Assembly: GCF_041260155.1 (NCBI RefSeq)
Contig: NC_091934.1
Coordinates: 42,720,898 to 42,784,897 of the forward strand
Length of the DNA: 64,000 nt
Direction: 5' to 3'
Origin: Ptychodera flava
Lineage: Eukaryota; Hemichordata; Enteropneusta; Ptychoderidae
The notes under the pieces are model-generated. The model did no database searches. It was not told where the DNA came from and was given only the letters and a program-made list of their open reading frames with translations. This document shows, piece after piece, positions 10,801-64,000 of the stretch. Made by a program: the position numbers and the translations under genes. The stretch's first letter is position 1. Each line of letters opens with the position of its first letter.

Positions 10801-13800
10801 AGTCAATCTCAATGTTTTAGACACCATTGTGACCTATTTGACCTTGACATATCCACTGTTACCAGATCCTAGATTAACCCTTTGAGCGCAAAAGTGAATT
10901 TTTTCACATTCATAAAATATGCCCTAGTCAATTTTTTCAGATTTTTACTAAAATTTTTGATTAAAAACTGTAGTCAATGAAATATGATCTCCTTTTGGTC
11001 CAAAATTATCAAAAAACTATTAAAGAATTATTCATAAAAATTGGTAAAATGTTGCATTAAAATTATGGTGGGAAAAATTACAGCACGCAAAGGGTTAAAG
11101 GTATACAGTCACCTGTAATCTAACTATGCCCGTATATGGTCAAAGGGGCGTTCCTTGGTATTCAAAATGCCCATGTGAGGGCGCTGTTTTTAAAAAGCGG
11201 CCACCCGCTTAAAATCTGTGATTGGTTGGATTTTCTCTTTCCATGGTAACTGGGGCAAAATTGGAACAGGTGACAGTATACCTTTAATGTTGGTGAACAG
11301 TCATGATTTTGTGAAAAGAATAGTCAGAGCATAAATGAAACGATCTTGAATTTGAATTTCAGACGATGATGGCCCATCACTTCCTACAAAAGCAAATGAG
11401 GAGTTCAGACCCTTCATTCGAAGGTTACCCGAATTTAAATTTTGGTAAGCATGATTTATTTTACTCCTTCGGTAGTAAAACTGAAGGACCTCTTCATTGT
11501 CTTCCGCATATATATAGAAAGAATAAAAATCAGTCATAGAGGCGTAGATTTTTAGATGAAAAATTGTCTTGTTTTCCTTAAAACAAGATGGAGAAATCTT
11601 AATTTAGTCGGCATTTTTCAAAATGAGGCTGCACACATGCTGTACACCAGTTATGAAAATGTGAGGTTTCAAAATGTGCTCTCTCTTCCCCCCCCCCCCC
11701 CCAATACTACAGACTTGTCTGATGAGAGGTGTAGCTAGGGTTTTAATTCAAAATATGGGCAAATTGTCGGGCACACCTGGAGCTTAATAAAAACGCCCAG
11801 CAAATCATTAATTTGGTAGGGTAAATAACACAAACTATATGGGGGCCCGTTCTGGTCAAAATTATGTTTTTTTTTTAATTTTAGTATGTTAGAATTAATT
11901 TTATGTAGACTAGAATTAATTTACTAGCACCTCGAATTAATTGTATGTTTCTTTTAATTAATTTTTATATGCTTTAATTAATATTGTGTAGTCATGCCGA
12001 GTTAATTTTGTGTGTTCCAATTAATTATTCTGCTTATCTTGGGTGTAATTAATTTTATGTAGTCTAGAAATAACTTTGCTAACATTTCAAATTATTTGTA
12101 TGTTTTTTATGTGCCGGAATTAATTTTATGTAGTTTATATTTAATATATTAATTCCTTCAATTGATTTTGGGTTCAAAATGTTTTCGTGCGCTGCAATTA
12201 ATTTAATGTGTGCTAGAATTATTTTCTACAAGTGTCTTGAATTAATTTTGTGTTCGGTCAAAGTAATTATGTGTGTTCGGTCGAATTAATTATGTGTTTG
12301 AGCGAATTAATTACGTGTGTTCGATCGAATTAATTATATGTGTTTGCTCAAATTAATTATATGTGTTTGCTCGAATTATTTTCGGCCGATCCCACAGTCC
12401 TTTGCGCACGCTTTCTTAAATCAATACGGCGGCTCCCGACCAGAGTGGTATAGTTATTCAGGCGCTCGAACCGTAATCTGTGAAAATGGAAATCAATAAA
12501 CTGATCACAAAACTTTGTAGTGTCTCCTGTCTGAGAGATCGTGTATGTGATTGCCCATAGAGCAAAGACTGACCAATTTTGTGTTTACGTCAGACGCGAA
12601 CGTTCACCCTTTCTATCGGGCTTTGCCAAGCATCGTGTAGGCCTACTGTAGTGTAGTGCAGTGTACTGTAAGCGTATGTGTGTATGTATGTATGTATGTT
12701 TAGTACAGTACTGGTGTCTGATGTGCCTCAATACTTTTGTTCTGTTCATCACACACAACAGTCATTTTATTACAGCTCATTGGTAATGTTTAGTGTAAGT
12801 GTGAGGCAACTTGAGATCAGCAAAACTAAAATCCAAAATAAGCGCCCATCCCCGAAATCGCCTGTGGGCCTGTATGTGGATGGGCCTAATATCAGAAAAC
12901 TCTGGTAATTAAAACTTCACTGGTTCATCTATCTTATTCATAATGCCATGAACTGTACAAACAGTACTATCCAACATTTGATGCTTACAGAGTGATAACA
13001 CTTTGCATTTTCTTTCTTACAGGTATTCTGCCACAAAAGCTATAGTAATAGCATTTGTGTGTACGTTTTTTGAAGTGTTTAATGTACCTGTATTCTGGCC
13101 GATATTGGTAGTTTATTTCATCACTTTGTTTTGTATAACCATGAAGAGACAGATTAAGGTAAGACAATTAGCTGCTAGTTAGTCCCCACGGACACCGTCC
13201 GGGGGACTTATAGGTTTGGTCGTGTCCGTGCGTCCGTCCGTCCGTTCACGCAGATATCTCAGAGATGCCCGAAGCGATTTCATTCAAACTTGGTACAAGG
13301 ATTACTTCATATGTCATACAGATGCACGTCGATTTGTTTTGTGATACGATCCAATATGGCTGCCAGGCGGCCATTTTATTACGATTTTTTCATGTACAGA
13401 GCCATAATTCAGGCATGTTTCAAATGATTTTATTCAAAGTTGGTACAAGGACATTGACCAATGTCATAGATATGCACGTCAATTCTTTTTGTGATACGAT
13501 CCAATATGGCCGCCGTGCGGCCATTTTGTTACGATTTTTTCATGTACAGAGCCATAACTCAGGCATATCTCAACTGATTATATTCAAAGTTGGTACAAGG
13601 ACATTGACCTATGTCATACATATGCACATCAATTTGTTTTGTGATACGATCCAATATGGCCGCCAGGCGGCCATTTTGTTACGATTTTTTCATGTACAGA
13701 GCCATAACTCAGGCATATCTCAACCAATTTTATTCAAAGTTGGTACAAGGACATCGACCTATGTCATACACATGCACATTGATTTGTTTTGTGATACGAT

Positions 13801-16515
13801 CCAATATGGCCGCAGTGTGGCCATTTTATTACGTTTTTTCATGTCCAGAACCATAACTCAGACATGTATCAAGCAAATTTATTCAAAGTTGGTACAAGGA
13901 GATTGACCAATGTCATACATATGCATGTTAATTTGTTTTGTGATACGATCCAATATGGCTGCTGTGCGGCCATTTTGTTATGATTTTTTCATGTACAAAG
14001 CCATAACTCAGGCATATTTCAACCGATTTTAATCAAAGTTGGTACAAGGACATTGACCTACCGTATATCATACATATGCACATTGATTTGTTTTTGTGAT
14101 TCGATCCATTATGGCCACCATGTGGCCATTTTATTACGATTTTTAGCTACTATAGACTATAGTCTATAGAAGCTATTGGGATGGGTATCCGTCCGGCGTC
14201 CGTCGTCAGTCTGTATGTATGTATGTATGTATGTATGTATGTATGTATGTATGTCCGTTTGTGAGGCGTCCGTCCACTCAAATATCTTGAGAACCTCAGT
14301 ACTTACTGATTTGATATTTGTTGTGTAGATGAAAAATATGATTTTGAGAAACTATTTTTTTTAATTTTTTGATATTGTTGAAAATAGGCAATTAATGCCA
14401 AAAAGGTGTTTTTGGTAAAAAATCTTCTTCTTCATAACCGCTGGTCAGACAGCTTTGTTATTTGGTATACAGGTCCCTAGGGATAACCCAACTTAGATTT
14501 GTTCAAATTGTAATGAAATATGCAAATGTGTATTTTTAAGGAATTTTTTTGTCATTTTTTATCAAAAAATTTGACTTACATTGTATGTAATTCTTGTACT
14601 GTATAAACCCTATCAATTCACCCAGAAAAAAATAATTAATATGATTTTAAATAATTGAATTAATTAGGAAATCATCAAAGCCAAAATAATTTTAGTGTGG
14701 AATTATCAGAAAGTTCACCTTTTTTTGACAGTTCATAGTGAAATGCTTACCATCTTGGAGGATTAAAACATTTAAAGGCAACTTTCCTGAATCCCAACTT
14801 TGACATATTCTGAACCGTCATTTATTGTGCCCTGTATGTTATCTAAAAGAAATCGCTCATAATAGATTGTCATGATAAGGTGGTCAAGTAAATAGAGATA
14901 GAGAAAGTTCTAATTTCCATTTATGGTTGACTTGGTAAGGATAAAATAAGATTACTTTTTGAGGAAAAAAATAGAGTGGTCAATTAAAAGAGTGGTCAAA
15001 GTGATAGGGTTTTTATGGTAAAGCTGGGCTGTAAGATTCCTTGTGCTATTTATAGCAATAATGCAATCTGTGTAAACAGTGCAATGAAAGTGTAACATGA
15101 TTCCTTATGCTTTTGATGACCTTGAACTTCTTAAGTTACAAACATTTGTCTCTTCAGTGTGCTTTCTCTGAGTATGTACAGTCTCAGCTTATTCAACAGA
15201 ACTTACTTACAATGTTAATTTGAAAGTTAAAATGTGCTTGGTTAATAGGATGAAAATAAAAAGATAACCAGCTCAAGATTCTTTATAACCTGACAGATAT
15301 GCTTTTTTATTATGACGTAAATCTTGATTTAAGCAAGTCTTGTTTACTTTAATTAGAATGTAATTAACTCTCGTTTATTTGCTATTATAGACTAATATAG
15401 TCTGATGAAATATGCAAATCTGTATTTTTACGGAATTTTTTTCCATTTTTGGTCAGGCCATCGTGAAATGAGCTATCAAAGATATCCACCTTCTTCATCA
15501 ATACATGTGTCACAAAAGGTTATTCTCTACATAACACAGCAGAGCTCTGTCAACTGTTGAGTCGCTTGTTTTTTCAAAACCGCTGGTCAGACAGCTTGGT
15601 TTACATGTCCCTAGGATGACCTTAGTGAGATAATTTCATACAGTCAGGAAATACTTAATTTTGTATCCATGTCTATAGTAGCTTCAGGGACTTTGGCCCT
15701 ATGTTTTCATGTCCTGAACTACAACTCAGACATGTATCAAGCGAATTTATTCAAAAGTATTTTTATCACAGACCTAATGAAGAGGACTCTATCCTCTCTG
15801 AGGACCTGTAATCAAAGTACCCATTAACAAGTGGGGACTGTGTCATCAACGATGACTTGTTTTAATTAAGGTAGTACACACCACAAAACTCAAAGACTTT
15901 TAATAAAAAATTCCCCAATGAAACTTTCAACTATTCTGTGAACAAAGCAAGAATAAAAATCAGGGAACACCACAATTTTTTGGTGTACAGAAAACAAATC
16001 CCTAAAATTTACTGAAATATGAAATTCAAAATGGCCGCCATTCCTGTGTTAACTATATGGGAAAAAATTCAAATTTCGTTTTTCACAAAACTAAGACTGT
16101 GAAAACTTAACTTACTCAAACACCTTCAAAATGAGCCCCACATGCTGTACACTAGAAAGAATTGTAAAAATTTGAGTCTAAATGTCTGTCCCCAAGACTC
16201 TACAATTTTGTGGACTGTACAAGTTTGGAAATATTAATGATGAAATTATTCATGACTAGATTTTTTAGGCTAATGTTCTGAACTACTGAGTTTGTTGTTT
16301 TATTTGAACATTGCAATCACAATTTTTCTCACTTTACTTTCAAATAAACCAGCCTGTCTTTGTATCAGTTATGCTTCACACTTCGTACTGACTGATTTGT
16401 TGTTTCTATTTTCTTGTTCTCACAGCATATGATCAAGTACAGATACCTTCCCTTCACGCACGGTAAAACAAAATACAAAGGCAAAGAAGACAGTGGAAGT
16501 GTCATAGCCAGTTAA
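4896..16515 (+). CDS. RER1: RER1, ER retention/retrieval receptor (6 coding exons)
   Basis: RER1 is a four-span Golgi membrane protein that sorts ER membrane proteins and unassembled subunits into retrograde COPI carriers. Coding exons: 4896-4958, 10129-10233, 10696-10795, 11363-11444, 13023-13158 and 16426-16515, all with GT donors and AG acceptors and joining in frame to 191 residues (human 196). Diagnostic segments are [11 protein letters not shown] (residues 14-24), [17 protein letters not shown] in exon 3, [14 protein letters not shown] in exon 4, and [18 protein letters not shown] followed by [20 protein letters not shown] across exons 5-6. The N-terminus ([13 protein letters not shown]) is divergent, as usual in this family. 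An acceptor at 4868 shows the 5' UTR is spliced. The introns are loaded with transposons: 5488-7794, several short inverted-repeat elements, and a family A element starting only about 19 bp after the exon 5 donor. Nothing in the coding sequence looks broken. Confidence 0.97.
5890..6590. mobile_element. nested 701-bp inverted-repeat element, TSD ACGTAGC
   Basis: The left terminus CACAGAGTAATATCATAGAC and the right terminus GTCTGATATTACTCTGTG are inverted copies of about 30 bp, with a two-base indel. The 7-bp direct repeat ACGTAGC flanks the element at 5883-5889 and 6591-6597. It lies wholly within the larger transposon and so inserted later. The minus strand has a 99-residue open frame at 5921-6220 that I do not recognise; it may be a remnant of the parent element's gene. 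The 7-8 bp duplication would suit hAT- or P-type transposases, but the superfamily is not decided. Confidence 0.8.
7375..7590. repeat. two tandem copies of a ~110-bp unit
   Basis: Within the right part of the 5488-7794 transposon a unit is repeated twice. Both copies have TTTCAATTCTCGCGA, then TGCTGTACACTA, then TGACGTCAAAT, then GGCTCGATTGC. The second copy starts near 7477. Each unit carries a TGACGTCA palindrome (perfect CRE) and CTCGCGA/TCTCGCGAGA motifs, which are unusual in this AT-rich region. Confidence 0.65.
7847..7925. mobile_element. short TTAACCCTTTG-ended MITE
   Basis: The 79-bp segment begins TTAACCCTTTGCACCC and ends GGGTTCAAAGGGTTAA, an inverted repeat with TTAA at both tips. 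TTAA plus CCC ends are typical of piggyBac-type elements. It is the shortest member of the family also seen at 10874, 18983 and 21524, sharing termini but not the interior. Confidence 0.6.
8063..8290 (+). repeat. interspersed repeat D, copy 1
   Basis: About 225 bp, starting GACTGCATTAACTTGCATGG and ending near CCTAAGTTAATGGAGC. The ends are weakly inverted (CATTAACTT / AAGTTAATG). The same sequence occurs in opposite orientation at 28358-28580. It contains GTGCCATTGTA twice in a row. It is likely a MITE; no target duplication was recognised. Confidence 0.65.
9087..9552. mobile_element. 466-bp MITE with ~28-bp inverted ends (TA-type)
   Basis: The left end ATATGGCACAAGATCACTAA and the right end TTAGTGGTCTTGTGCCATAT are inverted copies continuing for about 28 bp with few mismatches. 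The terminal TA on each side could be a TA target duplication of the Tc1/mariner type. There is no transposase frame. It lies in RER1 intron 1. Confidence 0.7.
10426..10511 (+). repeat. short repeat F, copy 1
   Basis: An ~86-bp segment starts CCTGTTCACCCCGGATTTCC and ends TTTGGGCCAAACCATGGTGG plus TGAAGGGGTT. A second copy in the same orientation is at 37311-37396. It is likely a degenerate small MITE. Confidence 0.5.
10874..11098. mobile_element. 225-bp TTAACCCTTTGAGC MITE (piggyBac-type ends), copy 1
   Basis: Starts TTAACCCTTTGAGCGCAAAA and ends CAGCACGCAAAGGGTTAA, with TTAA at both tips. Internal landmarks are ATATGCCCTAGTCAATTTTT and GGTGGGAAAAATTACAGC. These landmarks recur at 18983-19204 and 21524-21743. 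The right-hand TTAA (11095-11098) is shared with the next element. Confidence 0.8.
11095..11287. mobile_element. 193-bp TTAAAGGTATAC MITE, copy 1
   Basis: The ends TTAAAGGTATACAGTCACCT and AGGTGACAGTATACCTTTAA are inverted, with TTAA at both tips. A second copy of exactly the same length, same orientation and nearly the same sequence is at 20619-20811. It includes GTGAGGGCGCTGTTTTTAAA. It directly abuts the preceding MITE, the two sharing one TTAA. Confidence 0.85.
11868..12385. repeat. AT-rich minisatellite built on GAATTAATT
   Basis: About 500 bp in RER1 intron 4 consists of degenerate ~20-bp units of the form GAATTAATTnTATGTGTkTk. The last units (12240-12385) are the most regular, with GTTCGnTCGAATTAATTAT. 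The core AATTAATT is a homeodomain-type palindrome present dozens of times. A TATG microsatellite follows at about 12673-12700. Confidence 0.8.
13285..14140 (+). repeat. 150-bp tandem array (family A core)
   Basis: About six units. The phrase TTGGTACAAGGACATTGACC recurs at a spacing of 150 bp (13440, 13590, 13740, 13890). Each unit has TTTGTTTTGTGATACGATCC, then the palindrome ATGGCCGCC-n-GGCGGCCAT, then CATGTACAGAGCCATAACTC. Because 150 is a multiple of 3, one frame stays open across several units. I regard that as a by-product rather than a gene. Confidence 0.85.
14145..15683 (+). mobile_element. family C element nested in family A
   Basis: The ends AGCTACTATAGAC and GTCTATAGTAGCT are perfect 13-bp inverted repeats. 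Inside the left end come GTCCGGCGTCCGTCGTC, a TATG microsatellite (14212-14252), GAGGCGTCCGTCC and CAAATATCTTGAGAACC, the same order of modules as family A. The phrase AACCGCTGGTCAGACAGCTT occurs twice (about 14437 and 15580). No coding frame is seen. It interrupts the family A array, so it is the younger insertion. Confidence 0.7.
15868..16270 (+). repeat. interspersed repeat E, copy 1
   Basis: Starts AAGGTAGTACACACCACAAA, two bases after a TTAATT just past the end of family A. It shares its opening, and GGAAACTTTCAACnAT-type phrases further on, with 20588-21480. It contains AATGGCCGCCATTC. The right border is uncertain. Confidence 0.45.
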
Positions 16516-28749: not shown

Positions 28750-30434
28750 ACAAGCGACCTAGCGGCCGATATAGCTCCGCTGTGTTTATGTAGAGAATAA
28801 CTATTTTTGACACATGTTGATGAAGTAGGTGGAAATCTTTGATAGCTCAATGCAGTGGCCAGAAAAAAGTGGCTAAAATAGCTGCAAAAATACAAAATAG
28901 AAGATTTCATTGTACTTCGAATATATCACATTGGGTCATCCCTAAGAACATGTCAACTATCTGATGAGTATTTTTTTGGAGAATAAAATTTTCTGACCAA
29001 AAATGGCAACAATTGCCCCAAAAAATAAAATTTGCAGATTTCATCATAATTTCAAAAGATCAAATTTAGTTCATCTATAGAAACCTGTATACCAAATTTC
29101 AAAGCTGTTGAACAGTACTTTTTGAGAAACACATTTTTTAACCAAAAATGGAAAAAATTGACCCAAAAATTCAAAATTGCAGATTTCATCATAATTTCGA
29201 TAAATATTATTTAGTTCATCTATAGAAACCTCTATACCAAATTTCAAAGCTATCAGATGAGTAGTTTGGGAAATACTGGTACACATTTTTTGACCAAAAT
29301 TGGCAAAAATTGCCCCAAAAATACAAAATTACAGATTTCATCAGAAATTCAATATATATTACTAAGCTCATCTGTAGAAACCTGTATACCAAATTTCAAA
29401 GCTATCAGACCAGTACTTTTTGAGAAACACATTTTTTGACCAAAAATGGCAAAAATTGCCCCAAAATTACAAAATTGCAGATTTCATCATAATTTCAATA
29501 AATATCATTAAGGTGATCTGTAGAAACCTGTATACCAAATTGCAAAGCTATCAGATGAGTAGTTTTGGAAATACACATTTTTTGACCAAAAGTGGCAAAA
29601 ATTGCCCCAAAAATACAAAATTGCAGATTTCATCATAATTGCAATAAATATCATTTAGTTCATATGTAGGAACCTGTATACCAAGTTTCAAAGCTATCAG
29701 ATGACTATTTTGGAAATACACATTTTTTGACCAAAATGGCAAAAATTGCCCCAAAAATACAAAATTACAGATTTCATCAGAAATTCAATATTTATTACTT
29801 AGTTCATCTCTAGAAACCTGTATGCCAAATTTCAAAACTATCAGACCAGTACTTTTTGAGAAATACATTTTTTGACCAAAAATGGCAAAAATTGCCTTAA
29901 AAATGCAAATTTGCATATTTCTGCACAATTTGAACAAATCTGAAATAGATCATCCCTAGGGACATATGTACCAAATATCAAAGCTATCTGACTGGTAGTT
30001 TTGAAGGAGAAGATTTTTAAAAATTTTTTTACCAAAAATGACAAAAATTGCCTTAAAAATACAAATATGCAAATTTCCCCACAATTTGAACAAATCTGTC
30101 TGAAGTCACCCTAAGTAAACTGCATATCAAATTTCAAAGCAATCAGACAAGCGGTTTCAGAGAAGAAGAGTTTTTTACCAAAAACACCAAAAAATGCCCC
30201 AAAAATACAAATATGCAAATTTCACCTACATTTGAACAAACTTAAGTGAGGTCACCCCAAGTGAGCTGCATATAGATTTTCAAAGAATTGGACTTGCGGT
30301 TTCCGAGGAGAAGGCATTGTTGACGGACGACGACGGACGACGACGACGACGACGACGGACGACGACGACGACGGACAACGACGGAAAATCAACCTATTTG
30401 ATAAGCTCAGCGTCGCTGACAGCGGAGCTAAAAA
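28750..30434 (+). mobile_element. family B element, copy 1
   Basis: Begins ACAAGCGACCTAGCGGCCGA followed by TATAGCTCCGCTGT, and ends GCTGACAGCGGAGCTAAAA. TAGCTCCGCTGT and ACAGCGGAGCTA are inverted. The body has about ten units of ~145 bp with ACCTGTATACCAAATTTCAA, GAGTAGTTTTGGAAATACAC and the near-palindrome ATGGCAAAAATTGCC. Near the right end is a (GACGAC)n/GACGGAC stretch (30316-30385). A stem CAGCG/CGCTG precedes the terminal GCTAA. No coding frame. A second copy is at 61905-63578. Confidence 0.8.
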
Positions 30435-35539: not shown

Positions 35540-45164
<9,625 letters not shown>

Positions 45165-46117: not shown

Positions 46118-46494
46118 TGTTGCTGACAATGCGTACCACCTGCATCACTACTTGGAATATGTTACAGACGTGTGTAGTACTCGTGGTCAACAAGGCTGCA
46201 CTGAGCTGTGATAATTCACAATCTCAACCGAATTTGTAAATCATAGACCCTAATAACGGATCCGTGGGGTCTATGTGTAGACGCAGTTGTTTGTGTTTAT
46301 CCAAGCGAAACAAGTCGTTGAAATCATGGTCAATAACTTCTTTAAAGTCATGAAATGTGACGAACTCAATATGCTTGACTGGCTCCCATATTAAAACCAT
46401 CCTTTTTTAGCTCCATGTTCATACTGACCATGTTCTCTGCTACCTCCATGTACTGACACACACTCATTCATCACCCTATCATACTATCATTATA

Positions 46495-46675
46495 CACATA
46501 TTGACTGGCCATGAGGGCAACAGCATACGTCTGTACCCGAGGGACTGTGAGTCACCCCAAAAACAGACTGTTTCCCGAGGCCGTAGGCCGAGGGAAACAG
46601 TCTGTTTTTGGGGTGACTCACAGGCCCGAGGGGTTAAAGACGTATGCTGTTGCCCTCATGGCCAGTCAATATGTG
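46495..46675. repeat. 181-bp near-perfect palindrome
   Basis: The arms begin CACATATTGACTGGCCATGA and GAGGGCAACAGCATACGTC and read back as their inverse to GGCCAGTCAATATGTG. The centre is GAGGCCGTAGGCCGAGG with AACAGACTGTTTCCC arms round it. Only a few mismatches near 46540-46548 and 46624-46636 break the symmetry. It abuts the transposon-like element starting at 46674. Confidence 0.9.
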
Positions 46676-47155
46676 TTTTGTAACACACCTCATCCGTAGT
46701 CATACATAAGCACGTACCATACACAAAAGTTGTCACATGATGTAATATGTTGGAGTGGTTCAGCAAGAAAAAGTTTTTGCCGACAGGGTCGCAATACTTC
46801 TGCAAAACGTTCAATGCACCATTGATTATCGTCTTCGTTCGTTTCGAGTCCTTGTTTGAAACCAGAGCATTCAGTTCTTCTTCAGAAAGTAGGATAAACC
46901 GAGAAATTTCTCGACTATCGTTTCGCTTGTCCGCAGACGGCATCTTTGTTTACATTCCAGTTCGCGCATGCGCCAATGTTTTTTTGACGTCAGCGGGCAT
47001 CATTTTTCGGAACTGATGCCTGGCAGGCAACAGTTCCGACAAATGATGCCTGATGACGTCGTTTACGTGGATCAGCACAAAAAGAATGCATCCCACGTGA
47101 CTGTCAATTGGCGAATTAGAACACAGACTGCGGATGAGGTGTGTTACAACACAAA
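46674..47155. mobile_element. inverted-repeat element with a recombinase-type N-terminus
   Basis: The ends TGTTTTGTAACACACCTCAT (continuing CCG) and ATGAGGTGTGTTACAACACA are inverted over about 28 bp. On the minus strand an ATG at 46943 opens a frame containing SRFILLSEEELNALVSNKDS and KRTKTIINGALNVLQKYC. This pattern (acidic 'EEE', then 'KDSK-TK--I--AL-V---Y') resembles the N-terminal part of Crypton-derived tyrosine-recombinase-like (DUF3504-type) proteins abundant in marine invertebrates. The rest of such a protein is absent. A further palindrome lies at 46986-47060 with GACGTC at both tips. It looks like an internally deleted derivative. Confidence 0.5.
46963..46992. promoter_or_regulatory. 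NRF1-type and CRE motifs upstream of DDB2
   Basis: CGCGCATGCGCC at 46963-46974 fits the NRF1 consensus, and TGACGTCA at 46985-46992 is a perfect CRE. Both lie about 300 bp upstream of the DDB2 start, inside the inverted-repeat element at 46674-47155. Use by DDB2 is inferred from position only. Confidence 0.45.
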
Positions 47156-47292: not shown

Positions 47293-50200
47293 ATGCCTAC
47301 TTCAAGACAAACCAAGAGAAAGAGGCAACAATACAAAAGCACTGATGATGTCACGCCAGCGATTGAGATTCAACGTAAAAAGAGACATGTCAAGAATGAT
47401 GTTAACTGCAACACCGATAAAGAAAATTCAGAAACTGACTTATTATTACCAAAGGTATTTATCCAATCTGCTAAATACATACTTTTTCTCAGTCTTTTTT
47501 GAGACACTCATTTCCTTGATTTATAGGGACAATAACAAAAACTATCGATGACATCATTGATTTTTTTTGTTTGATTAAACAGGTATTTTGTTCTTCATTC
47601 CCATTAAAATGGGTCGCAAAACAATGTATCAGCCCTTCAGAAAAGAGCTTAGTATACGACATGTAATTTCTTTCAGACAAATGATTTATGTATTTGGACT
47701 GAAATTCATTTTTTGAAATGGGTCATCAAACACATACATGTACAAGCTTTATTGACAGATTAAATGCATTTATTTCATTTTGCTCGACTGGTAAGACAAC
47801 AAAAACTAAATTTTACAAATAGAAAGATTTCAGCCATTTTATGAAAGCACTTTGTGATACACAAATCTTTTTTTCTCCAACAGTTCTCATTCTGTGGAGG
47901 AAAGGAACGGAGGGTGCCAAACATTCCCATAATTCCCCCTGTTGGTAAGAACAGTAACAATCTAATGCATCACATGTACAACACAGTACTTGGAAGATCA
48001 ACTCAAAGTAACTTGAGAAAGGTATGACTGCTACATTGCCCATGTATTTTATTATTTGTTCAACACAGAGTCAATGTGAGTCAATGATTGGATTGCAGCA
48101 GCTGTGTTTTAAACTTCTACCTTCATATGAACCTCAACCCAACTTTTACATTCACACAGAAACTTTAAATCTAGGATTAAGCTATAATAATGCTTCTTCC
48201 ATGGCAATTAAAATTTATCCAGTGCCATAATCTAAGGTCAGAGGTACCATATGTTTTGCTCAAATCAGACAATATGATATTATCATAGAATTAGGAAACA
48301 TTTGATTTATTAAATCCTTTGATAAACACATAAAGACCTCATGAGACTGCACTATCACTAGCAGATTAATCTCAGTAATTGCCCGGGGGAACTATACTCA
48401 CTGGATTTATTATCAGAACTATCACTGCAAACCTAGTTAAAAAGATCACTCCTGACCTCTGTAGTAGTGACAATCCATTTCTGATTGTTCACAGAAATAT
48501 TACAGTTGTGCAGATCAAGACTTGTTATATCCAGAAATATTTCTTTGATGATGTAAATATTGACAGTATATCTGAAAATCTTAGTTTTATCAGACAGAAG
48601 AGGAGATGATAATAATGATCTTCATTGCATTTAGATGCAGCAGTTTCCTAACTCCCCATTGTATGTCATTTACAGTGTTTAGCACAGCCATTCATCCGTA
48701 TGTTGTCCAATTCACGACTCTTCCGCACTGCCAGCCCCTTTGACAGGAGAGTGACTGCCCTGGAATGGCATCCCACAGAACCCAACACGTTGGCTGCAGG
48801 GTCAAAGGGCGGTGACATCATCCTGTGGAATCATGCCAGGGTTGACAAACAGGAATTCATCTCAGGGGTAAGCTGTAAAAGATATACATGTAGTTTTACA
48901 ATTCTATTGACTTACATGCTAAAAGCTCTAGTGATATGATTTCGTGGAAAATACCATGTAACAGGTGTTAAATTTGCCAAATCAGCACAAAAAATAGACT
49001 TATGCCTAAAACCTTCCTATGATCTTACCCTTGTTTTGCCATGACAGTGGACATGAGTGAATTATTTATTTCAAGCAAAGTTAAGGAATCATTCAATTTT
49101 AGTAGAAGAGAATTTCAGCTGTGTCTGAGTACTGATGATAGATTCTTAAAAAAAGATATAAAAGCAGATGCCCCTTGCTTTTTCAGATTGGACCAGGTGG
49201 CAATATTTCATGCATCAAATTCAACAAAGATAACCCAACTCAGATTTACACTTCATCACTAGATGGGGAAGTTAGATTGCAAGATTTTAATGGCAATTAC
49301 AAGAAAATATTCCTTCAGACAAATGACTGGGGGTAAGAAACAAAGGGTTTCAGGATCAGAAACATGGTTTTGTCACAAGACTGGTGTTTCTAGGATATTT
49401 CAGAGTAACTTTTTACCTGAATTGAGAGACACAAGTGTCGTCCTCAAAGTGTACTTGTGTATTAATGGGAATCGAAAGTCTGTCGTTCAGAAACAAAAAC
49501 AAAAAAATCTTCATATATGGCCATAGAGGGCAGCAAAATTTTTCGTAGCTAAAGTTAGCCAGATGTGTGTCATCTGAAAATGTAGCGAGGGTGAGTATAG
49601 AACCACAATCAACTTTATTCAAGAAAAAACAAATGAACTCGATACATGGCAATAGAGGGCAGCACAATTTCTGGTAGATATGCAGTGACTGAATTCAGGA
49701 ATTGAGATATCATGCAGTGATAAGCAGTGCACATTTTTGTGTAACGGAATGATCCATAGAGTTGCACTTGTCAGCTGACAAGACCATGGTTCACAGGTCC
49801 AAATTTTACTGTACTTTACAAGTTGCATGTGACATCTTTCATTTAACTCCTACTTTATCCTGCTTAGATTGGCAAGGGAGGATCCATCACTGCCATGAAA
49901 TTTAATCTGGATGATCCTTGTAGTGTCTTCACTTCTTCCATAAATGGCACAGTCAGCTTACAAGATTTCAATGGCAAACATAATCAGATACTCCTCGACA
50001 CGTGTGACTGGAAGTGAGCACCACTTTTTCCTTTTGCACTGTTTAATGACACATGTGTCCACAGACATGCTGTGTCATCAAAAGGCCATTTCATGACCCC
50101 TTTTGACCTGATAGATTAACCTGAAAGACAAGCACAACATGCAATATTTTCATATTTCATATTTTCATATTGGCATGTAGTTTGAAAAGAAAATATTGTC

Positions 50201-53200
50201 AACTTGAATTGTGTATGCATGAATCTTGTGTAAGGGAACATGTGCCATTTCTGTAATTCAGTTTGAGGCAAGAGGCAAGGAAATGTTTTTTATTTTGTAT
50301 TTGCTTTTGGTGCATGGATGTACACAGTTTCAAGATAAACCATTCCTTTCAGTCTTAAATGAACATGTAAGATACACTGAGACTCAATAAATTGTTGTCA
50401 GGTACATTTTAAGTTCGTAGTTCAGAGGCCTATCTGTTTGCATGAGCTGAAGATTTATAACTATCACTTATCAAACGTTTTTACCCAAATTTATCCGTTC
50501 CAATATATTCTCTGAGATTTGAAGTCAGCAACTGCTTAGTCATTCTATGGTGCAGAATAAAGCACCCCAATTTTACCCAACCTTACTTATTTTCATTTTA
50601 GTTACTGGTACTGTAGTGTAGATGTCTCCTACACTGCCAATCTCATAGTGACTGGTGATAACGTTGGTAACACTGTATTGCTGAGTAGAGATGGCAAAGA
50701 GGTGAGTGTGAATAAGCCGATGTGTATGGATATGTGGATTTTCTAAAAGCAAGTTTTAAAGTCGTTTAATATGCAAGCCAGTGAAACGGTCAATTTCCAT
50801 CATGTGTGATGTCAGCTATTTGATATATTTGGTAGAAGAATAGTGCCTGATCAAGAGAGGGGTAACTACTTATTATGAAGGTTCTGTCATCGAAGAATTG
50901 ATTACAGTTAATGGCAGTAGCTTAAATAATATGCAGGCAGAATTCTTACCATGTTACAGAGCAGGCCTGCGGTACCGACACAAGGCAAGCTTAGCAAATC
51001 ATAAATTATTGGAAAATAGTTGAATTCCGTATCTTTTCTTATGTTTCTTTTCAAGTAACTTTAACAAAGAACAGTTGTTGCAACAAAGTAAAGTCAGCTT
51101 TTGAAATTTGTCTTCATAACTATTTTTTGTTGCACATGGCAGCTGTGGAAATACAGGCTTCACAAACAGAAAGTCAGCCACTGTGAGTTCAATCCGCAAT
51201 GTGATTGGCTGGTGGTGACTTCATCAGTTGACAAGACAGTGAAATTATGGGATATACGGATGGTGAAGGACAGGAAGAGCGCCCTCCATGTATTGGAGCA
51301 TCAGAAACCAGTCAATTCAGGTAGGCTAGCCTCTGCAGCTTTAGACAAATTTTCCTAAAACAATTCATGAAGAGATAAATCTATTTACTGACATGATAAA
51401 TTTGAAATCACTTCTATACGTACAAGCAGGTTAATCATAAATATTACAGATAACTGCACTGATAATCAGGCCTCCATAGTGTTAACCTGATAACTACCTC
51501 AGATCTTGGTGTACAAAAAAAAATCGAAATAAGTTAAATATAGAGCAGGAAGGTAACTGCAATGCGCACCTGCCTGGTTGAAAATTGATCTGCCAGGGGC
51601 TTGAAGATAGGCAGGTAATTTTGACTTCGTTATTTAGATTTATGAGCTCTTCAGTATGCCATGACCTTGCGCCGAAAACTTTTCACAATGAAGGTACATC
51701 AGGTTAACACTGCCAATGATCCCTAGGTTGTCAACACTGTTTGTAGTTACCGTAGTGTATTCTTTGTATTACAGCTTACTTCAGTCCAGATAGTCACCAG
51801 TTGCTTACAACAGATCAACACAATGAGATTCGTATCTATCAATCACCTGATTGGAGTAGAGTGAAGCAAACAATCGCACATCCTCACAGGTTCTTCCAAC
51901 ACATCACGCCAATCAAGGTCAGTGAAATATGCCAAAGGAGGGAAATCTTAATCCCAAGACAAGGCATGACTTCAAGATCTTTCGAGTAAAAGATGTTTAG
52001 GATGTTCCAGTCTTTCGGTGATGTCTGGTATATTTGTGTTGATTACTCAACACATGTCATCCAACCTCTGCAATGCTATGGGAGTCTTTTTGCTCAGTAC
52101 TTGACATTTCAACTCTATGTGTTGTAGATCTCGTGTTAGGTCTGATGTACAGTAATCATAACGCGTTTCAGTTCTGGTCAAATTTCTGTGTACAGTAGGT
52201 ATACACAGTGCTGCAAACATACCTGTAGAGCAACATTTGTAATTGTCTCAACATTTTTTTATAAATCTGTACAGGCAACATGGCATCCAGTGTGTGATTT
52301 GGTGGTTGTGGGACGATACCCTGATGAGAATTTCCCAGGATATGTCAAGAATGAGGCAAGGACTATTGACCTATTTGATGCAAATACAGGAGAAATTGTC
52401 TGTCAGCTTCATGATCCTAAAGCTCCAGGACTGATTTCGGTAAGGAAAACTCTAGCTGCATTCTGATTTGCATAAATTATATGCTTAACAGATATTGGTC
52501 AATCTAGGGTTAGTTACAATAACAAATTGCAATTTCCTGAATTTGTATGTCGTGTTACAATTATACAGAACTTAACATTTCATTATTTATGAATGAATGA
52601 ATATTTATTGCATTTGTGTGGGCTTCCAGCCCCTATACATTATATTTCATATATTTATGTTCTGCAATATTGTTCTCTCTTTAGGTAGACATGGACTTAT
52701 ATTCCATAATTTCTTTCCCAGTTTAACTAATCATGCATAAATGTACCATATTGTTCACTGGAAATCTTATCAGGATTAGAGTTCTTTGACAGTTTCTCAA
52801 CTTACTCAATCCTCGCGACTCAAATACCTGACAGTCAACAAACAAAGTAATATGTTTTTTTTCTCTTTCTTTGAAATAATAAAAATAGCTCAACAAATTC
52901 AACAAGAGTGGTGATGCACTAGCCTCTGCCATGGGTAAGTTGTAATGTGATTGTAAAGTTCATTCTTAGGAAGTAATTATAATTATACTACGGATTTGAA
53001 ATACCAAAAAACTAGATTCTTCTCATCTCACATTGGAAAAGGTTTGTGGCATGTGCAGGTTGAGTGGCAAACATGTGTAACTTCATTGCAACACGTTTGG
53101 GCTGACAGCTGACATACTAGGGACGAGTATTATAACAGCTAAACTTTACCTGTTGTAGGATAGGATAGGATAAATAATTTATATACATGTAACAGTGTGT

Positions 53201-53732
53201 CAACATTGGAAGACGTTCACTGCCTGGTGCTTGACAAAAAAATTTTACAGATAAGATCCCTTAAAGAATTGATACTTCGTCTGGAAGCAGATAGTAATCT
53301 CAAAAACCAGATAAGACCGGTCAGAAGAATTGACTCATGCATTTGGTTGAGTTCTAATTCTTGTAGAAAGCTGTTGAATGGTCACCCTTCCTCACTTGCC
53401 AAGTACAAACAAACATTTTTGACAAAGATTACCATGACAAAATCATCACCATATTCTTTCTCTTAATGACAAATTGTATTCATATTGTCAGTGCCAATTC
53501 AGGGGTAATTTACTAGTCTATCTTATTTCACATTGAAGGCTACAACATTCTCATCTGGCTTGAAGACAAAGATATTGAACAAAGACAGCAGGAACTGGTG
53601 GAGAAGATGAAGGCTCAAGGCATTGCGCCAAAAAGCAACCAATCACAGAGCAGGAGAAGGCAGCGAAAGACTGACTCAAAGATTGATGCAGCAACTAAAG
53701 CTAAAATTGCTGCTAAGCTGCAGCAGAGATAA
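47293..53732 (+). CDS. DDB2: DDB2, UV-damaged DNA-binding protein 2 (10 exon positions, one duplicated)
   Basis: DDB2 is the WD40 lesion-recognition subunit of the UV-DDB/CRL4 ubiquitin ligase in nucleotide excision repair. Exons: 47293-47454, 47884-48021, 48676-48867, then either 49187-49332 (4a) or 49868-50013 (4b), 50602-50701, 51143-51320, 51775-51917, 52275-52439, 52889-52934, 53539-53732. With one exon 4 this gives 487 residues (human 427). The N-terminus is Lys/Arg-rich ([13 protein letters not shown]). Exon 2 corresponds to the DDB1-docking helix-loop-helix. WD-propeller segments include [45 protein letters not shown] (Arg285 equals human R273) and [10 protein letters not shown]. The lesion-probing FQH hairpin is at 346-348 within [13 protein letters not shown]. 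The C-terminus has a basic, Gln-rich extension as in fish proteins. It is head-to-head with TPI. Confidence 0.96.
49187..49332 (+). other. DDB2: DDB2 exon 4a (alternative propeller segment)
   Basis: 146 nt, acceptor TTTTTCAG, donor GG|GTAAGA. It encodes [20 protein letters not shown], then [20 protein letters not shown] and IFLQTNDW with a split Gly. It is homologous to human GAGGSITGLKFNP...SSMEGTTRLQDF. It is fully open with good splice sites. The length is 2 mod 3, so it cannot be joined to 4b without losing frame. Confidence 0.88.
49868..50013 (+). other. DDB2: DDB2 exon 4b (alternative propeller segment)
   Basis: Also exactly 146 nt, acceptor CTGCTTAG, donor AA|GTGAGC. It encodes [20 protein letters not shown], then [20 protein letters not shown] and ILLDTCDW with a split Asn. 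It covers the same human segment as 4a and enters exon 5 in the same phase (DWGYWYCSVD from 4a, DWNYWYCSVD from 4b). The two exons differ clearly at the protein level but keep GG-I, KFN, TSS and LQDFNG. Confidence 0.88.
52587..52640 (-). mobile_element. possible LINE 3' tail scrap
   Basis: On the minus strand the segment reads GGCTGGAAGCCCACACAAAT, then GCAATAAATA and (ATTC)n. An AATAAA followed by a tetranucleotide run is typical of CR1-like LINE 3' ends. It is very short, in DDB2 intron 8. Confidence 0.35.
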
Positions 53733-55814: not shown

Positions 55815-57635
55815 GTTAGTCCCCACGGACACCGTCCGGGGGGACTTATAGGTTTGGTCATGTCCGTGCGTGTGTGTGTCCGTGCGTGCGTGCGTCCGTC
55901 CGTTCACGCAGATATCTCAGACATGCCCAGGTCAATTTCTTTCAAACTTTGCACAAGGATAGTACCCTACCCCATACAGATGCACGTCGATTTGTTTCAC
56001 AATGCGATCAAATTTGGCCGTGTTAGAGGACTTTTTAGTTTTCACCTCCATAGACTCCCATGTATAGGCAGTCTCCATAGACTCCCATGTATAAGGCAGT
56101 CCATAGACTCCCATGTATAAGGCCAAGAAAAATAAAAATTTAGTTTCTCATTGTATTCATATTGCAAAAAGGATGCAGTGACACAGTTTTTAGTCCCAAG
56201 GGGGCTTATAGATTGGGTCATGTCCGTCCGTGAGTGGGACAGCTTATGACGCCACATATTGTACCTCATTAATTATGTGCATATCTAATTTTGAGCGAGC
56301 CAATAGAGCTAGAGGTCTGACTTTTGGTATGTAGGGATAACTAAGCCTACAATTTTTTTTGACTAATGTCATGTGACCTCGGTGACCTTTGACCTCAAAT
56401 ATACATATTTGTCTATAACTCCGTAACCACAAGTGCTACACCCTTCATATATGGTATGATGGGACAGCTTATGACGCCACATATTGTACCTCATTAATTA
56501 TGCACATATCTAATTTTGAGCAAGCCAATAGAGCTAGAGGTATTATTTTTGGTATGTAGGGATAACTTAGCACTACAATTTTTTTGACTAAATGTCATGT
56601 GACCTCGGTGACCTTTGACCTCAAATATACATATTTGTCTGTAACTCAGTAACCACAAGTGCTAAACCCTTCATGGATTGTATGATGGGACACTTTATGA
56701 CGCCACATATTGTACCTCATTATTTATGTGCATATCCAATTTTGAGCGAGCCAATAGAGCTAGAGGTCTGATTTTTGGTATATAGGGATAACTTAGCAAT
56801 ACAATTTTTTTGACAAAATGTCATGTGACCTCGGTGACCTTTGACCTCAAATATACATATTTGTCCATAACTCAGTAACCACAAGTGGTACACCCTTCAT
56901 ATATGGTATGATGGGACACCTTATGATGCTTCATACTGTACCTCATTAATTATGCGTATATCTAATTCTGAGCAACCCATAGAGCTGGATGTCTGATTTT
57001 TGGTATATAGGGATAACTATAGGATAGAAATTTTTTGACCAAATGTCATGTGACCTCGATGACCTTTGACCTGAAATATACGTTTATGTCGATAAATACG
57101 TAACCACAAGTGCTATGTCCTTTATATTTAGTAGGGTGGGAGACCTTATGACAACACACGCTTTACCTCATTAATTATGCACACATCTAATTCTTGGCAA
57201 GGGAATAGAGCTAGAGGTCTGATTTTTGGCATATAGGGATTAATTAGCAATACAATTTTTTTTCAAAATGTCACGTGACCTTATGACCTTTGACCTTGAT
57301 TATACATATATATGCATAACTCAGTAACCACAAGTTCTATACCCTCCAATTCTGATAGGATATTAGACCTTAAGATGTCACATCTTGTACCTCATTATTA
57401 TGTGCATATGTATTTCTTGGCTGGCCAATACAGCTAGAGGTCTGATCTTTTTTCCCGATTTAGAACCATAACTTAGACATGCCTCATGTGATTCAAATTG
57501 GGAACAACGACATATGTGCCCATAGATCTCAACATATACACTCCAGTGATACTTCTTAATGACCACATTTCCCTGCCCCATCAAGACTAATACTCCTATT
57601 ACAAGTGGGGACTATGTCATAGTCAATGACTTGTT
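55815..57635 (+). mobile_element. family A element, copy 3 (composite, different core)
   Basis: It has the family A left end (GTTAGTCCCCACGGACACCG) and right end (GTGGGGACT ... ATGACTTGTT). The right hairpin here is GTCAT-n5-ATGAC, changed in sequence from the other copies but still able to pair. The 150-bp array is replaced. After a short A-type opening come three copies of CCATAGACTCCCATGTATA (56046-56122), then a second, variant A-like opening near 56190 (TTAGTCCCAAGGGGGCTTAT), then the 228-bp array. Confidence 0.75.
56228..57425 (+). repeat. ~228-bp tandem array with hormone-response-like half-sites
   Basis: Six units (the last partial), starting with GGGACAGCTTATGACGCCAC-type phrases at about 56233, 56460, 56687, 56914, 57141 and 57367. 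Shared phrases are TGTACCTCATTAATTATG, GAGCTAGAGGTCTGATTTTT, AGGGATAACT and CACAAGTGCTA. Each of the first five units carries TGACCT-n3-TGACCT-n-TGACCT, preceded by ATGTCATG. Confidence 0.9.
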
Positions 57636-61564: not shown

Positions 61565-64000
61565 TTTTATTACTCAACACACACTGACAGAGAGTGTGGT
61601 ATGGTACATTTCAGATGAAAGAACAACATGTCCAAACTGAACACCATCAAATGGATATTAAAATCCAAGTAAATGGAATTGAAGTACACATATAACTCTA
61701 ACTGTAACCAGCTAACTGTAGGCAGGTACTGGAGGGATCAGCAAACACCAGAATTCCTTATAAGTATAGCAAGGTTTAGAAAATTCTGTTCCATAATCTT
61801 TTCATCTCTTCTACTTTTTCTTCGACACTCATAGTGATAGAAAAATCTGTTCCGCTTTTCTGGCACAAAATTGATCTCTCAGAAATATGACACTTGCATG
61901 TGAACAAGCGACCTAGCGGCCGATATAGCTCCGCTGTGTTTATGTAAAGAATAACTATTTTTTACACATGTTGATGAAGAAGGTGGAAATCTTTGATAGC
62001 TCAATGCAGAGGCCAGAAAAAAGTGGCTAAAATAAGCTGCAAAAATACACAATTGAAGATTTCATCATACTTTGAATATATGACATCCGATCATCCCTAA
62101 GAACATGTCAACCAAAGTTATCTGATGAGTAGTTTTTTGAGAATAAAATTTTCTGACCAAAAATGGCAACAATTGCCCCAAAAATGAAATTGCAGATTTC
62201 ATCATAATTTCAAGAGATCAAATTTAGTTCATAACTTAATCTATAGAAACCTGAATACCAAATTTCAAAGCTGTTAGACCAGTACTTTTTTTGAGAAACA
62301 CATTTTTGACCAAAATGGGAAAATTGCCCCAAAAATTCAAAATTGCAGATTTCATCATTATTTTTTAATAAATATCATTTAGTTCATCTATAGAAACCAG
62401 TATACCAAATTTCAAAGCTATCGGATGAGTAGTTTTGGAAATACACGTTTTGACCAAAAATGGCAAAAATTGCCCCCAAAATACAAAATTACAGATTTCA
62501 TCAGAAATTCATTATATATTACTGAACTCATCTGTAGAAACCTGTATACCAAATTTCAAAGCTATCAGACCAGTAATTTTTGAGAAACACATTTTTTGAC
62601 CAAAAATGGCAAAAATTGCCCCAAAATTACAAAATTGCAGATTTCATCATAATTTCAACAAATATCATTAAGGTGATCTGTAAAACCTGTATACCAAATT
62701 GCAAAGCTATAAGATGAGTAGTTTTGGAAATACACATTTTTTGACCAAAATTGGCAAAATTGCCCAAAAAATACAAAATTGCAGATTTCATCACAATTTC
62801 AATAAATATCATGTAGTTTATCTGTAGGAACCTGTATACCAAATTTCAAAGCTATCAGATAAATAGTTTTGGAAATACACATTTTTTGACCAAAAATGGC
62901 AAAAATTGCCCCAAAAATACAAAATTTCAGATTTCATCAGAAATTCAATATATATTACTCAGTTCATCTATAGAAACGTGTATACCAAATTTCAAACTAT
63001 TAGACCAGGACTTTTTGAGAAATACATTATTTGACCAAAATGGCAAAAATTGCCTTAAAAATGCAAATTTGCATATTTCTGCACAATTTGAACAAATCTG
63101 AAATAGATCATCCCCAGGGACATATGTACCAAATATCAAAGCTATCTGACTGGTAGTTTTGAAGAAGAAGATTTTTAAAGATTTTTTTACCAAAAATGAC
63201 AAAAATTGCCTTAAAAATACAAATATGCAAATTTCACCACGATTTGAACAAATCTGACTGAAGTCACCCTAAGTAAACTGCATGTCAAATTTCAAAGCAA
63301 TCGGACAAGCGGTGTAAAAGAAGAAGATTTTTTACCAAAAACACCAAAAATTGCCCAAAAATACAAATATGCAAATTTCACCACGATTTGAAAAAACTTA
63401 AGTGTGGTCACCCCAAGTGAACTGCATATAAAATTTCAAAGCAATTGGACTTGCAGTTTCAGAGGAGAAGGCAATTGTTGACGGACGACGACGGACGACG
63501 GACGACGACGGACGACGGACGACGACGGAAAATCAACCTATTTGATAAGCTCCGCATCGCTGACAGAGGAGCTAAAAAAAGTGAAACTCATCACCTATTA
63601 CATTACTATCACATCTCAAGCAAATTCTTTCATTTAAAGGTAAATGAGGTTTACATTTCCTACCAATTTCAACACGCAAATTATGATCACTCAGTCTTTC
63701 ATGGAGAACATCTTATCAATAGCAGTCCTTTAACAGAAAACACAGTCTGATGTACGTCTGTTTTTTCGAAAACCAAACTGGAAGTTAGAAAAAAGATTAT
63801 TATCCTCAAGATACTTAATAAGCCTCCTATATATATATTCATCACTGATGTAAAAAGTTTTGTAAAACAACTTGAAAGAGCAATTGCTCTATAATTATTC
63901 GGATCACACTTATCCCCCGACTTGTGAAGTGGAACTAATAAAGTGGATTTCCAAACTGCTGGAAATTGCCGCTTTGTAAAATGTGATTAAATAACTTAAG
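61535..64000 (-). mobile_element. LINE fragment (RT start and C-terminus), split by family B
   Basis: On the minus strand, 64000-63745 encodes WKSTLLVPLHKSGDKCDPNN and YRAIALSSCFTKLFTSVMN, then (one frame over) YLEDNNLFSNFQFGFRKNRR, the opening motifs of a non-LTR reverse transcriptase. The catalytic core is missing. At about 63740-63580 follows HNLRVEIGRKCKPHLPLNER and ICLRCDSNVIGDEFH, a CR1/Jockey-like C-terminal zinc region. After the family B insert, 61904-61560 gives the end of the frame, AATAAAA and a (GATT)n tail at 61534-61562. The clade is a guess. It continues past the right edge. Confidence 0.75.
61905..63578 (+). mobile_element. family B element, copy 2, inserted in the LINE
   Basis: The same layout and orientation as 28750-30434: ACAAGCGACCTAGCGGCCGA start, ~145-bp units, GACGGACGACG stretch (63479-63530) and GCTGACAGAGGAGCTAAA end. 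GTGAA occurs at both junctions with the LINE (61900-61904 and just after 63578), a likely 5-bp target duplication. The two copies align end to end. Confidence 0.8.

What the first reader, a model, noticed from the sequence alone, without database searches (positions are those of the whole stretch)
49187..50013. DDB2 has a duplicated 146-nt exon that must be spliced as a mutually exclusive pair
Exons 4a and 4b are both intact, both exactly 146 nt, both start in phase 0 and end in phase 2, have good splice sites, and both align to the same propeller segment of human DDB2. Using both would shift the frame and using neither would also break it, so exactly one can be used. They differ at many surface residues (for example [13 protein letters not shown] against [13 protein letters not shown]). 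The animal could therefore make two damage sensors with different lesion or partner preference. I know of no described mutually exclusive exon in DDB2.
Basis: partly seen in the sequence, partly recalled or inferred. Interest (0 to 1): 0.87.

Follow-up and report, generated by a model that had tools for sequence, protein, structure and literature searches.

The report
Swappable lesion-contact exon in DDB2
The DNA-damage sensor gene DDB2 of an acorn worm holds two intact versions of one exon, and the reading frame lets a full-length protein use only one of them; sea urchin gene models carry the same pair, and because this exon matches the part of human DDB2 that touches UV damage, the animal would likely make two sensors that read damaged DNA differently.

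Summary
Exons 4a (49187-49332) and 4b (49868-50013) are both 146 nt, phase 0 to phase 2, with GT-AG sites; either gives a 487-aa DDB2, both together stop at 222 aa, neither at 168 aa. The gene matches Ptychodera flava DDB2, whose RefSeq 'isoform X1' uses 4b. The pair is not local: sea urchin RefSeq isoforms X2 and X3 differ only in this segment plus one residue; X2 groups with 4a, X3 with 4b, which points to a duplication older than the echinoderm-hemichordate split. The exon is predicted to form one propeller blade and matches five of six human residues reported to touch a pyrimidine dimer (PMC12606344); two of the five differ (human A155: Pro/Lys; N201: Gly/Asn). Some vertebrate DDB2 models carry a second blade-2 version with a CxHxxHxVC loop; its origin is unresolved. 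No transcript using 4a in P. flava was seen, and different lesion preference is untested. No paper describing the pair was found. Mutually exclusive exons are a known kind, apparently undescribed in this gene.

The parts
47293..47454 (+). DDB2 exon 1 (start codon)
   Evidence: gene model; same N-terminus in RefSeq model P0001
47884..48021 (+). DDB2 exon 2
48676..48867 (+). DDB2 exon 3 (residues matching human R112 and K132, backbone contacts)
49187..49332 (+). exon 4a, 146 nt, mutually exclusive with 4b by frame; a-type blade 2 (Pro at human A155, Gly at N201)
   Evidence: groups with S. purpuratus X2 and L. pictus X2, support 99/96
49333..49867 (+). intron between 4a and 4b, 535 nt; holds a diverged 60-nt direct repeat (49492-49551, 49621-49680, 77%)
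49868..50013 (+). exon 4b, 146 nt, mutually exclusive with 4a by frame; b-type blade 2 (Lys at human A155, Asn at N201)
   Evidence: used in RefSeq isoform X1 P0001; b-type clade 85/79
50602..50701 (+). DDB2 exon 5 (supplies third base of split codon 213 = human N201; holds W215 = human W203 and K256 = human K244 lies just downstream or here by count)
51143..51320 (+). DDB2 exon 6
51775..51917 (+). DDB2 exon 7 (ends after ...[12 protein letters not shown], so it includes the F-Q-H hairpin residues 346-348)
52275..52439 (+). DDB2 exon 8
52889..52934 (+). DDB2 exon 9
53539..53732 (+). DDB2 exon 10 with stop codon

Best explanation
Exons 4a and 4b are a tandem-duplicated pair in DDB2 whose reading frame allows only one per full-length protein, and choosing one would likely swap a whole blade of the damage sensor, including most of the residues that touch the lesion. 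Shown here: the pair, its frame logic, coding constraint on the pair, and two matching segment types as alternative RefSeq isoforms of one sea urchin gene. Inferred from the tree: one duplication before echinoderms and hemichordates split, both copies kept since. Inferred from homology to human UV-DDB: the exon supplies human positions 153-201 (five of six reported CPD contacts), while the residues that grip the DNA backbone and the F-Q-H hairpin come from constant exons. Predicted and untested: the 4b form, with Lys at human position 155 and Asn at 201, and the 4a form, with Pro and Gly there, differ in lesion or chromatin preference, and wrongly spliced messages (both or neither exon) are frameshifted and degraded.
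For: Frame: both exons 222 aa, neither 168 aa, either 487 aa. RefSeq P. flava isoform X1 uses 4b, 4 differences in 487 residues, none in exon 4. S. purpuratus X2 and X3: 33 differing columns of 542, 32 inside the exon-4 segment and one single-residue gap at column 96; the 100 residues before and 150 after are identical, exon segment 19 of 51. L. pictus X2 is 4a-like. Both types are conserved between urchin genera: a-a 47/50, b-b 48/50 against 83/99 upstream and 131/150 downstream. Tree of 37 exon-4 rows: a-type clade 99/96 joins P. flava 4a with both urchin X2; b-type clade 85/79. AU tests reject 4a+4b as sisters (p 0.020), urchin a+b as one clade (p 0.0012) and all echinoderm forms as one clade (p 0.007). 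AlphaFold models: the exon is one four-stranded blade in the b form (P0001, strands 171-176, 183-188, 192-197, 203-208; ten-residue pLDDT means 83 for 161-170 and 91-95 for 171-220) and in an urchin a form (P0121, means 91-96 for 181-230); the eleven best PDB matches of the P0001 model are DDB2. CPD contacts G154, A155, G156, I200, N201, W203 in human DDB2 (PMC12606344, passages read) map by an alignment without gaps here, offset 12. Of 51 positions, one met my strict type-diagnostic rule: human 155, Pro in 3 of 3 a-type rows and Lys in 7 of 8 b-type rows used, 9 of all 10.
Against: No P. flava transcript or model using 4a was seen; the region search with 4a returned only P0001, and the Glandiceps and Saccoglossus models listed are b-type, so a single hemichordate row carries the a-type. 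RefSeq isoform models are predictions whose read support I could not inspect. The tree rests on 52 columns; the b-type clade is not starred, and one clade of all hemichordate forms (a lineage-specific duplication) is not rejected (p 0.168). Joining the a-type with cephalochordates (p 0.27) or with canonical vertebrates (p 0.098) is not rejected either, so the duplication could be older than supposed. Groups were named after seeing the sequences. Contact residues are not enriched among the differences: 2 of 5 against 23 of 49. At human 201 some b-type rows have Ser like the urchin a-type. No RNA-pairing signal was found that would enforce exclusion.
Confidence: 0.82

Rival explanations
1. Only 4b is used in P. 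flava; 4a is a rarely spliced or recently retired copy whose coding constraint is historical.
For: RefSeq isoform X1 uses 4b; the 4a region search found no separate 4a protein; the two other hemichordate models listed are b-type.
Against: 4a is open over 146 nt with intact splice sites, shares 26 of 49 residues with urchin X2 across phyla, sits on a zero-length branch in the a-type clade, and its urchin counterpart is a current isoform model. The name 'isoform X1' suggests at least one further model for this gene, which may be hidden in the 90% cluster of 4 members.
Confidence: 0.12
2. The exon was duplicated independently in hemichordates and in sea urchins (convergence).
For: One clade of all hemichordate forms is not rejected (AU p 0.168); convergent evolution of tandem exon duplications across animals is described in PMC9741552 (passages).
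Against: a-type clade 99/96; 4a+4b as sisters rejected (p 0.020), urchin a+b as one clade rejected (p 0.0012), all echinoderm forms as one clade rejected (p 0.007).
Confidence: 0.1
3. The pair is mainly an on/off device: splicing both or neither gives truncated, degraded messages, so exon choice tunes DDB2 amount and the two proteins do the same job.
For: Both and neither give premature stops; the lesion-contact positions are not enriched among the differences.
Against: Amount control needs no second, divergent and separately conserved coding copy; a-a and b-b conservation between urchin genera is higher than in the flanks.
Confidence: 0.1
4. Assembly artefact or chimaera of two DDB2 genes.
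For: None found; the window's own genome is not held, so depth could not be checked.
Against: Both exons fit the same frame and flanks; two matching types occur as isoform models of one gene in S. purpuratus; no other DDB2 exon has a second copy in the window.
Confidence: 0.02

Closest known systems
Mutually exclusive / tandem duplicated exon substitution (PMC5740500 and PMC9741552; passages read)
   Same: Adjacent homologous exons of equal length and phase; a length that is not a multiple of three, so that joint inclusion or skipping shifts the frame; one homologous region swapped inside a domain; an old pair.
   Different: 'DDB2' does not occur in the main text of either paper (supplements not read). 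PMC9741552 stresses ion channels and tissue-specific genes; here it is a DNA-repair sensor and the region holds most lesion contacts.
Human DDB2 (XPE)
   Same: Same protein; no gap over the exon in the human chain shown; DDB2 entries are the best structural matches.
   Different: The human chain shown has one blade-2 sequence, with Ala at 155 and Ile-Asn at 200-201. Human isoforms were not searched here.
Second blade-2 version in vertebrate DDB2 models
   Same: Same position; flanks near identical to canonical models of related species (Chelonia/Dermochelys: 99/100 and 150/150, exon 19/46); both versions in tandem in 5 gene models.
   Different: About 7 residues longer, with a CxHxxHxVC stretch that ends at the positions of human 200-201; separate clade 98/98; common origin with 4a or 4b neither shown nor rejected.

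Membership tests
Mutually exclusive tandem-duplicated exons | neighbouring homologous exons in one gene | tested here: met
   E = 2.6e-16 over 48 residues, 535 nt apart, no other exon duplicated
Mutually exclusive tandem-duplicated exons | same phase and length; either one keeps the frame | tested here: met
   146 nt each, 487 aa with either
Mutually exclusive tandem-duplicated exons | a route that leaves one exon per product: site incompatibility, branch-point proximity or frame shift (routes named in PMC5740500) | tested here: met
   frame shift: both 222 aa, neither 168 aa. The other routes are not seen: all sites GT-AG, intron 535 nt, no inverted repeats across the exon-4 introns, intron-intron duplex energies not beyond shuffles
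Mutually exclusive tandem-duplicated exons | transcripts with each exon alone | tested here: inconclusive
   4b in the P. flava RefSeq model; both types in S. purpuratus models; no reads available, no 4a model seen in P. flava
DDB2 | WD40 propeller closest to solved DDB2 | tested here: met
   480.8 bits to 4a08_B with 4a, 476.4 with 4b; Foldseek ranks 1-11 are DDB2 for the P0001 model
DDB2 | lesion hairpin F-Q-H and backbone-contact residues | tested here: met
   R124, K144, K256, Q320, F346, Q347, H348 match human R112, K132, K244, Q308, F334, Q335, H336
DDB2 | binds DDB1 and damaged DNA | not testable with these tools
   needs protein work

The most novel reading that the evidence does not exclude
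DDB2 is a two-headed lesion reader: in ambulacrarians and in many non-mammalian bony vertebrates, splicing swaps the blade that reads the lesion while the DNA grip and the ligase arm stay fixed, giving two sensors with different lesion spectra. The second vertebrate head carries a conserved Cys/His loop that binds metal or senses redox next to the lesion pocket, and the single head of human DDB2 is a later simplification.
Probability: 0.25. Interest if true: 0.93.

Novelty: new member of a known kind. Interest (0 to 1): 0.78.

Why it matters
DDB2 is a main sensor of UV lesions in chromatin and is usually treated as a single protein. A conserved exon pair that exchanges most of the lesion-contact segment gives natural pairs of sensors that differ only in the reading surface, so lesion specificity can be tested directly with recombinant proteins. 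It would also mean that invertebrate deuterostomes, and some vertebrates, can set damage recognition by splicing, a layer that work on human cells would have missed if mammals lack the second form (five mammal models of four species in the list lack the vertebrate motif; human and mouse genomes were not searched).

Tried and rejected
Own-genome search: no genome is held for this window. A first reference with a wrong frame was returned as an error and not pursued. A region search with the 4a isoform found only P0001, so 4a-type relatives were sought with the urchin X2 segment instead, which gave 4 proteins. RNA pairing that could enforce exclusion: for the three intron pairs 19, 21 and 59 of 60 shuffles were as low in energy as the real sequence, and no inverted repeat spans the exon-4 introns; this is a weak test. 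dN/dS between 4a and 4b: dS could not be computed (saturated), so only codon-position counts and a simple simulation are used. Common origin of the vertebrate second exon: AU p 0.21 when joined to the a-type, 0.21 to the b-type, 0.27 for a vertebrate-only duplication, so undecided; a-type with cephalochordates p 0.27 and with canonical vertebrates p 0.098, not rejected. The idea that lesion-contact residues are enriched among the differences was dropped (2 of 5 against 23 of 49). The bacterial-type promoter scan has no bearing on a eukaryotic gene.

Papers: ten searches. None listed a paper on a DDB2 exon pair, judged by titles and starts of abstracts, except where passages were read: PMC9741552 and PMC5740500 (no 'DDB2' in the main text), PMC8391564 and PMC3700808 (DDB2 only in passing or in references), PMC9858704 (a human DDB2 splice event in stomach cancer data, figure not held, its type not seen) and PMC11264951 (retained intron 2 in mouse Ddb2). 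PMC8629891, PMC12594552 (passages) were read for DNA contacts.

Selection of rows: of 623 protein hits only the best 120 are listed. The tree uses 37 rows: the two window exons and 35 segments from 33 of 122 fetched proteins, chosen by me to cover types and phyla; P0053 and P0066 gave two rows each; misjoined models such as P0036 and P0105 were left out, as were most of the near-identical vertebrate rows. The type-diagnostic count used 8 of the 10 b-type rows: the two sea stars (P0033, P0039) were left out because their segment is one residue longer; they also have Lys at human 155, but Glu and Asp at 201.

Full report
What is there. The window carries a complete DDB2 gene on the + strand, 47293-53732, with exons 47293-47454, 47884-48021, 48676-48867, 49187-49332 (4a), 49868-50013 (4b), 50602-50701, 51143-51320, 51775-51917, 52275-52439, 52889-52934 and 53539-53732. 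With either exon 4 the protein is 487 aa; with both it stops after 222 aa and with neither after 168 aa. The finding's coordinates, lengths, phases and example residues are correct.

Organism. The best protein match is the RefSeq model 'DNA damage-binding protein 2-like isoform X1 [Ptychodera flava]', with 4 differences in 487 residues, none of them in exon 4. The window is therefore from this acorn worm or a very close relative. X1 uses exon 4b. A second model (4a) was not seen; the cluster holds 4 members that the tool does not open.

More than chance. 4a and 4b find each other at E = 2.6e-16; no other DDB2 exon has a second copy in 64 kb (next non-self hit E = 0.045). They are 89 of 144 nt identical, with differences 17/9/29 by codon position. 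A copy with 55 random substitutions never kept 26 of 48 residues in 20,000 trials (uniform model, one copy free).

The same pair in sea urchins. X2 begins [16 protein letters not shown] and resembles 4a (26 of 49, against 19 for 4b); X3 begins IGKGGSV..SSIDGMVS and resembles 4b (26 of 49, against 22 for 4a). L. pictus isoform X2 (P0121) is 4a-like, L. variegatus isoform X1 (P0104) is 4b-like. Between urchin genera both types are conserved better than their flanks: 47/50 and 48/50 against 83/99 and 131/150.

Tree. In a tree of 37 exon-4 segments (52 columns) P. flava 4a groups with the urchin X2 forms (99/96) and P. flava 4b groups with the other hemichordates and the echinoderm b forms (85/79; within it hemichordates 96/85 and echinoderms 96/84). 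AU tests reject 4a and 4b as each other's closest relatives (p 0.020), the urchin forms as one clade (p 0.0012) and all echinoderm forms as one clade (p 0.007). They do not reject one clade of all hemichordate forms (p 0.168), nor the a-type with cephalochordates (p 0.27) or with canonical vertebrates (p 0.098). The groups were chosen after seeing the sequences. The simplest reading is one duplication before echinoderms and hemichordates split, possibly earlier.

What the exon encodes. AlphaFold models of the b form (P0001) and of an urchin a form (P0121) give a DDB2 propeller in which exon 4 is one blade with four strands (P0001: 171-176, 183-188, 192-197, 203-208) plus the loops on either side. 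Ten-residue pLDDT means are 83 for residues 161-170 and 91-95 for 171-220 in P0001, and 91-96 for 181-230 in P0121. The eleven best PDB matches of the P0001 model are DDB2 entries. The P. flava 4a protein itself was not modelled.

Why that matters. In the human UV-DDB nucleosome structure, G154, A155, G156, I200, N201 and W203 directly contact the pyrimidine dimer, R112, K132, K244 and Q308 hold the DNA backbone, and F334-Q335-H336 bind the orphan bases (PMC12606344, passages read). The human alignment has no gap here, so human number = P. flava number minus 12; R124, K144, K256, Q320 and F346-H348 fall in place. Exon 4 covers human 153-201, thus five of the six dimer contacts, and its last codon, split with exon 5, is the one for N201. 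Between 4a and 4b A155 is Pro or Lys, N201 is Gly or Asn, and I200 is Trp in both. Human 155 is the only one of 51 positions that met a strict type-diagnostic rule of mine (3 of 3 Pro, 7 of 8 Lys; 9 of all 10 b-type rows Lys). Contacts are not enriched among the differences overall (2 of 5 against 23 of 49). The backbone and hairpin contacts lie in constant exons. So the choice would alter the lesion-facing wall and leave the grip unchanged. That the two forms prefer different lesions is a prediction.

How exclusion could work. All sites are GT-AG and the intron between the exons is 535 nt, so site incompatibility and crowding are unlikely; no pairing RNA was found by a weak test. Frame, presumably with decay of wrong messages, is enough to leave one exon per full-length protein; PMC5740500 describes this route for human exons (passages).

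Vertebrates. Among the 122 proteins fetched, 20 carry a different blade-2 version with a CxHxxHxVC stretch whose last two residues take the places of human 200-201 when anchored on W203, and five of these models hold the usual version followed by the second one: Chelonia, Pitangus, Albula, Gymnothorax and Salmo trutta X2. The motif was the search criterion, so its constancy within these 20 is by construction; it is however also unbroken in the 9 second-version rows of the tree. Models of related species have near identical flanks but different exons (Chelonia/Dermochelys 99/100 and 150/150, exon 19/46). The second version forms its own clade (98/98), from sturgeon to birds. Its relation to 4a and 4b is open. 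The Cys/His loop could bind metal or form a disulphide; this is a guess from the motif.

Known or not. No paper on an alternative DDB2 exon of this sort was found: DDB2 with 'mutually exclusive exon' 9 papers, of which passages of two were read and the rest judged by title and start of abstract; DDB2 with 'exon duplication' 0 papers; DDB2 with 'sea urchin' 5 papers; at least four of five terms on DDB2, splicing, isoforms, vertebrate evolution and UV-DDB 5 papers. 'DDB2' does not occur in the main text of two studies of human exons of this kind. Most subscription journals are not covered. Other DDB2 splicing is in print: retention of intron 2 in mouse (PMC11264951). The isoforms described here exist as database models.

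Verdict. Real and conserved; a new member of a known kind, in an unexpected gene and at an unexpected place in the protein. Confidence 0.82 for the exon pair and its conserved exclusive use; clearly lower, about 0.4, for different lesion preference.

Noticed in passing
P0014, P0030, P0040, P0043, P0046, P0047, P0048, P0049, P0052, P0053, P0055, P0057, P0059, P0066, P0067, P0071, P0073, P0080, P0114, P0115: Second vertebrate DDB2 blade-2 version with a CxHxxHxVC loop at the lesion-contact positions, 20 of 122 proteins fetched; both versions in tandem in 5 models.
   Followed up: partly
window 46494-46676 and 46674-47153: Nested inverted repeats (45-nt arms 96%, 47-nt arms 89%, 37-nt arms 89%, 28-nt arms 93% complementary) just upstream of DDB2 exon 1, like fold-back or miniature transposons.
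   Followed up: no
window 13275-14144 and 37936-38972: Two arrays of a similar-looking 150-bp tandem repeat that hold or adjoin ORFs on opposite strands (213 aa at 13265-13906, 182 aa at 38539-39087) with the same repeated residues.
   Followed up: no
window 28974-30313 and 62113-63450: Two arrays of a similar 144-146-bp tandem repeat about 33 kb apart.
   Followed up: no
window 56235-57451: Tandem array of a 226-bp unit, 5.4 copies.
   Followed up: no
window 49492-49551 and 49621-49680: Diverged 60-nt direct repeat (77%) inside the intron between 4a and 4b.
   Followed up: no
P0033, P0039 (sea stars): Sea star isoform X2 models have a strongly changed blade 2 (CRHCLG.. where other rows have forms of LQDF) on a long branch of the b-type clade.
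   Followed up: no
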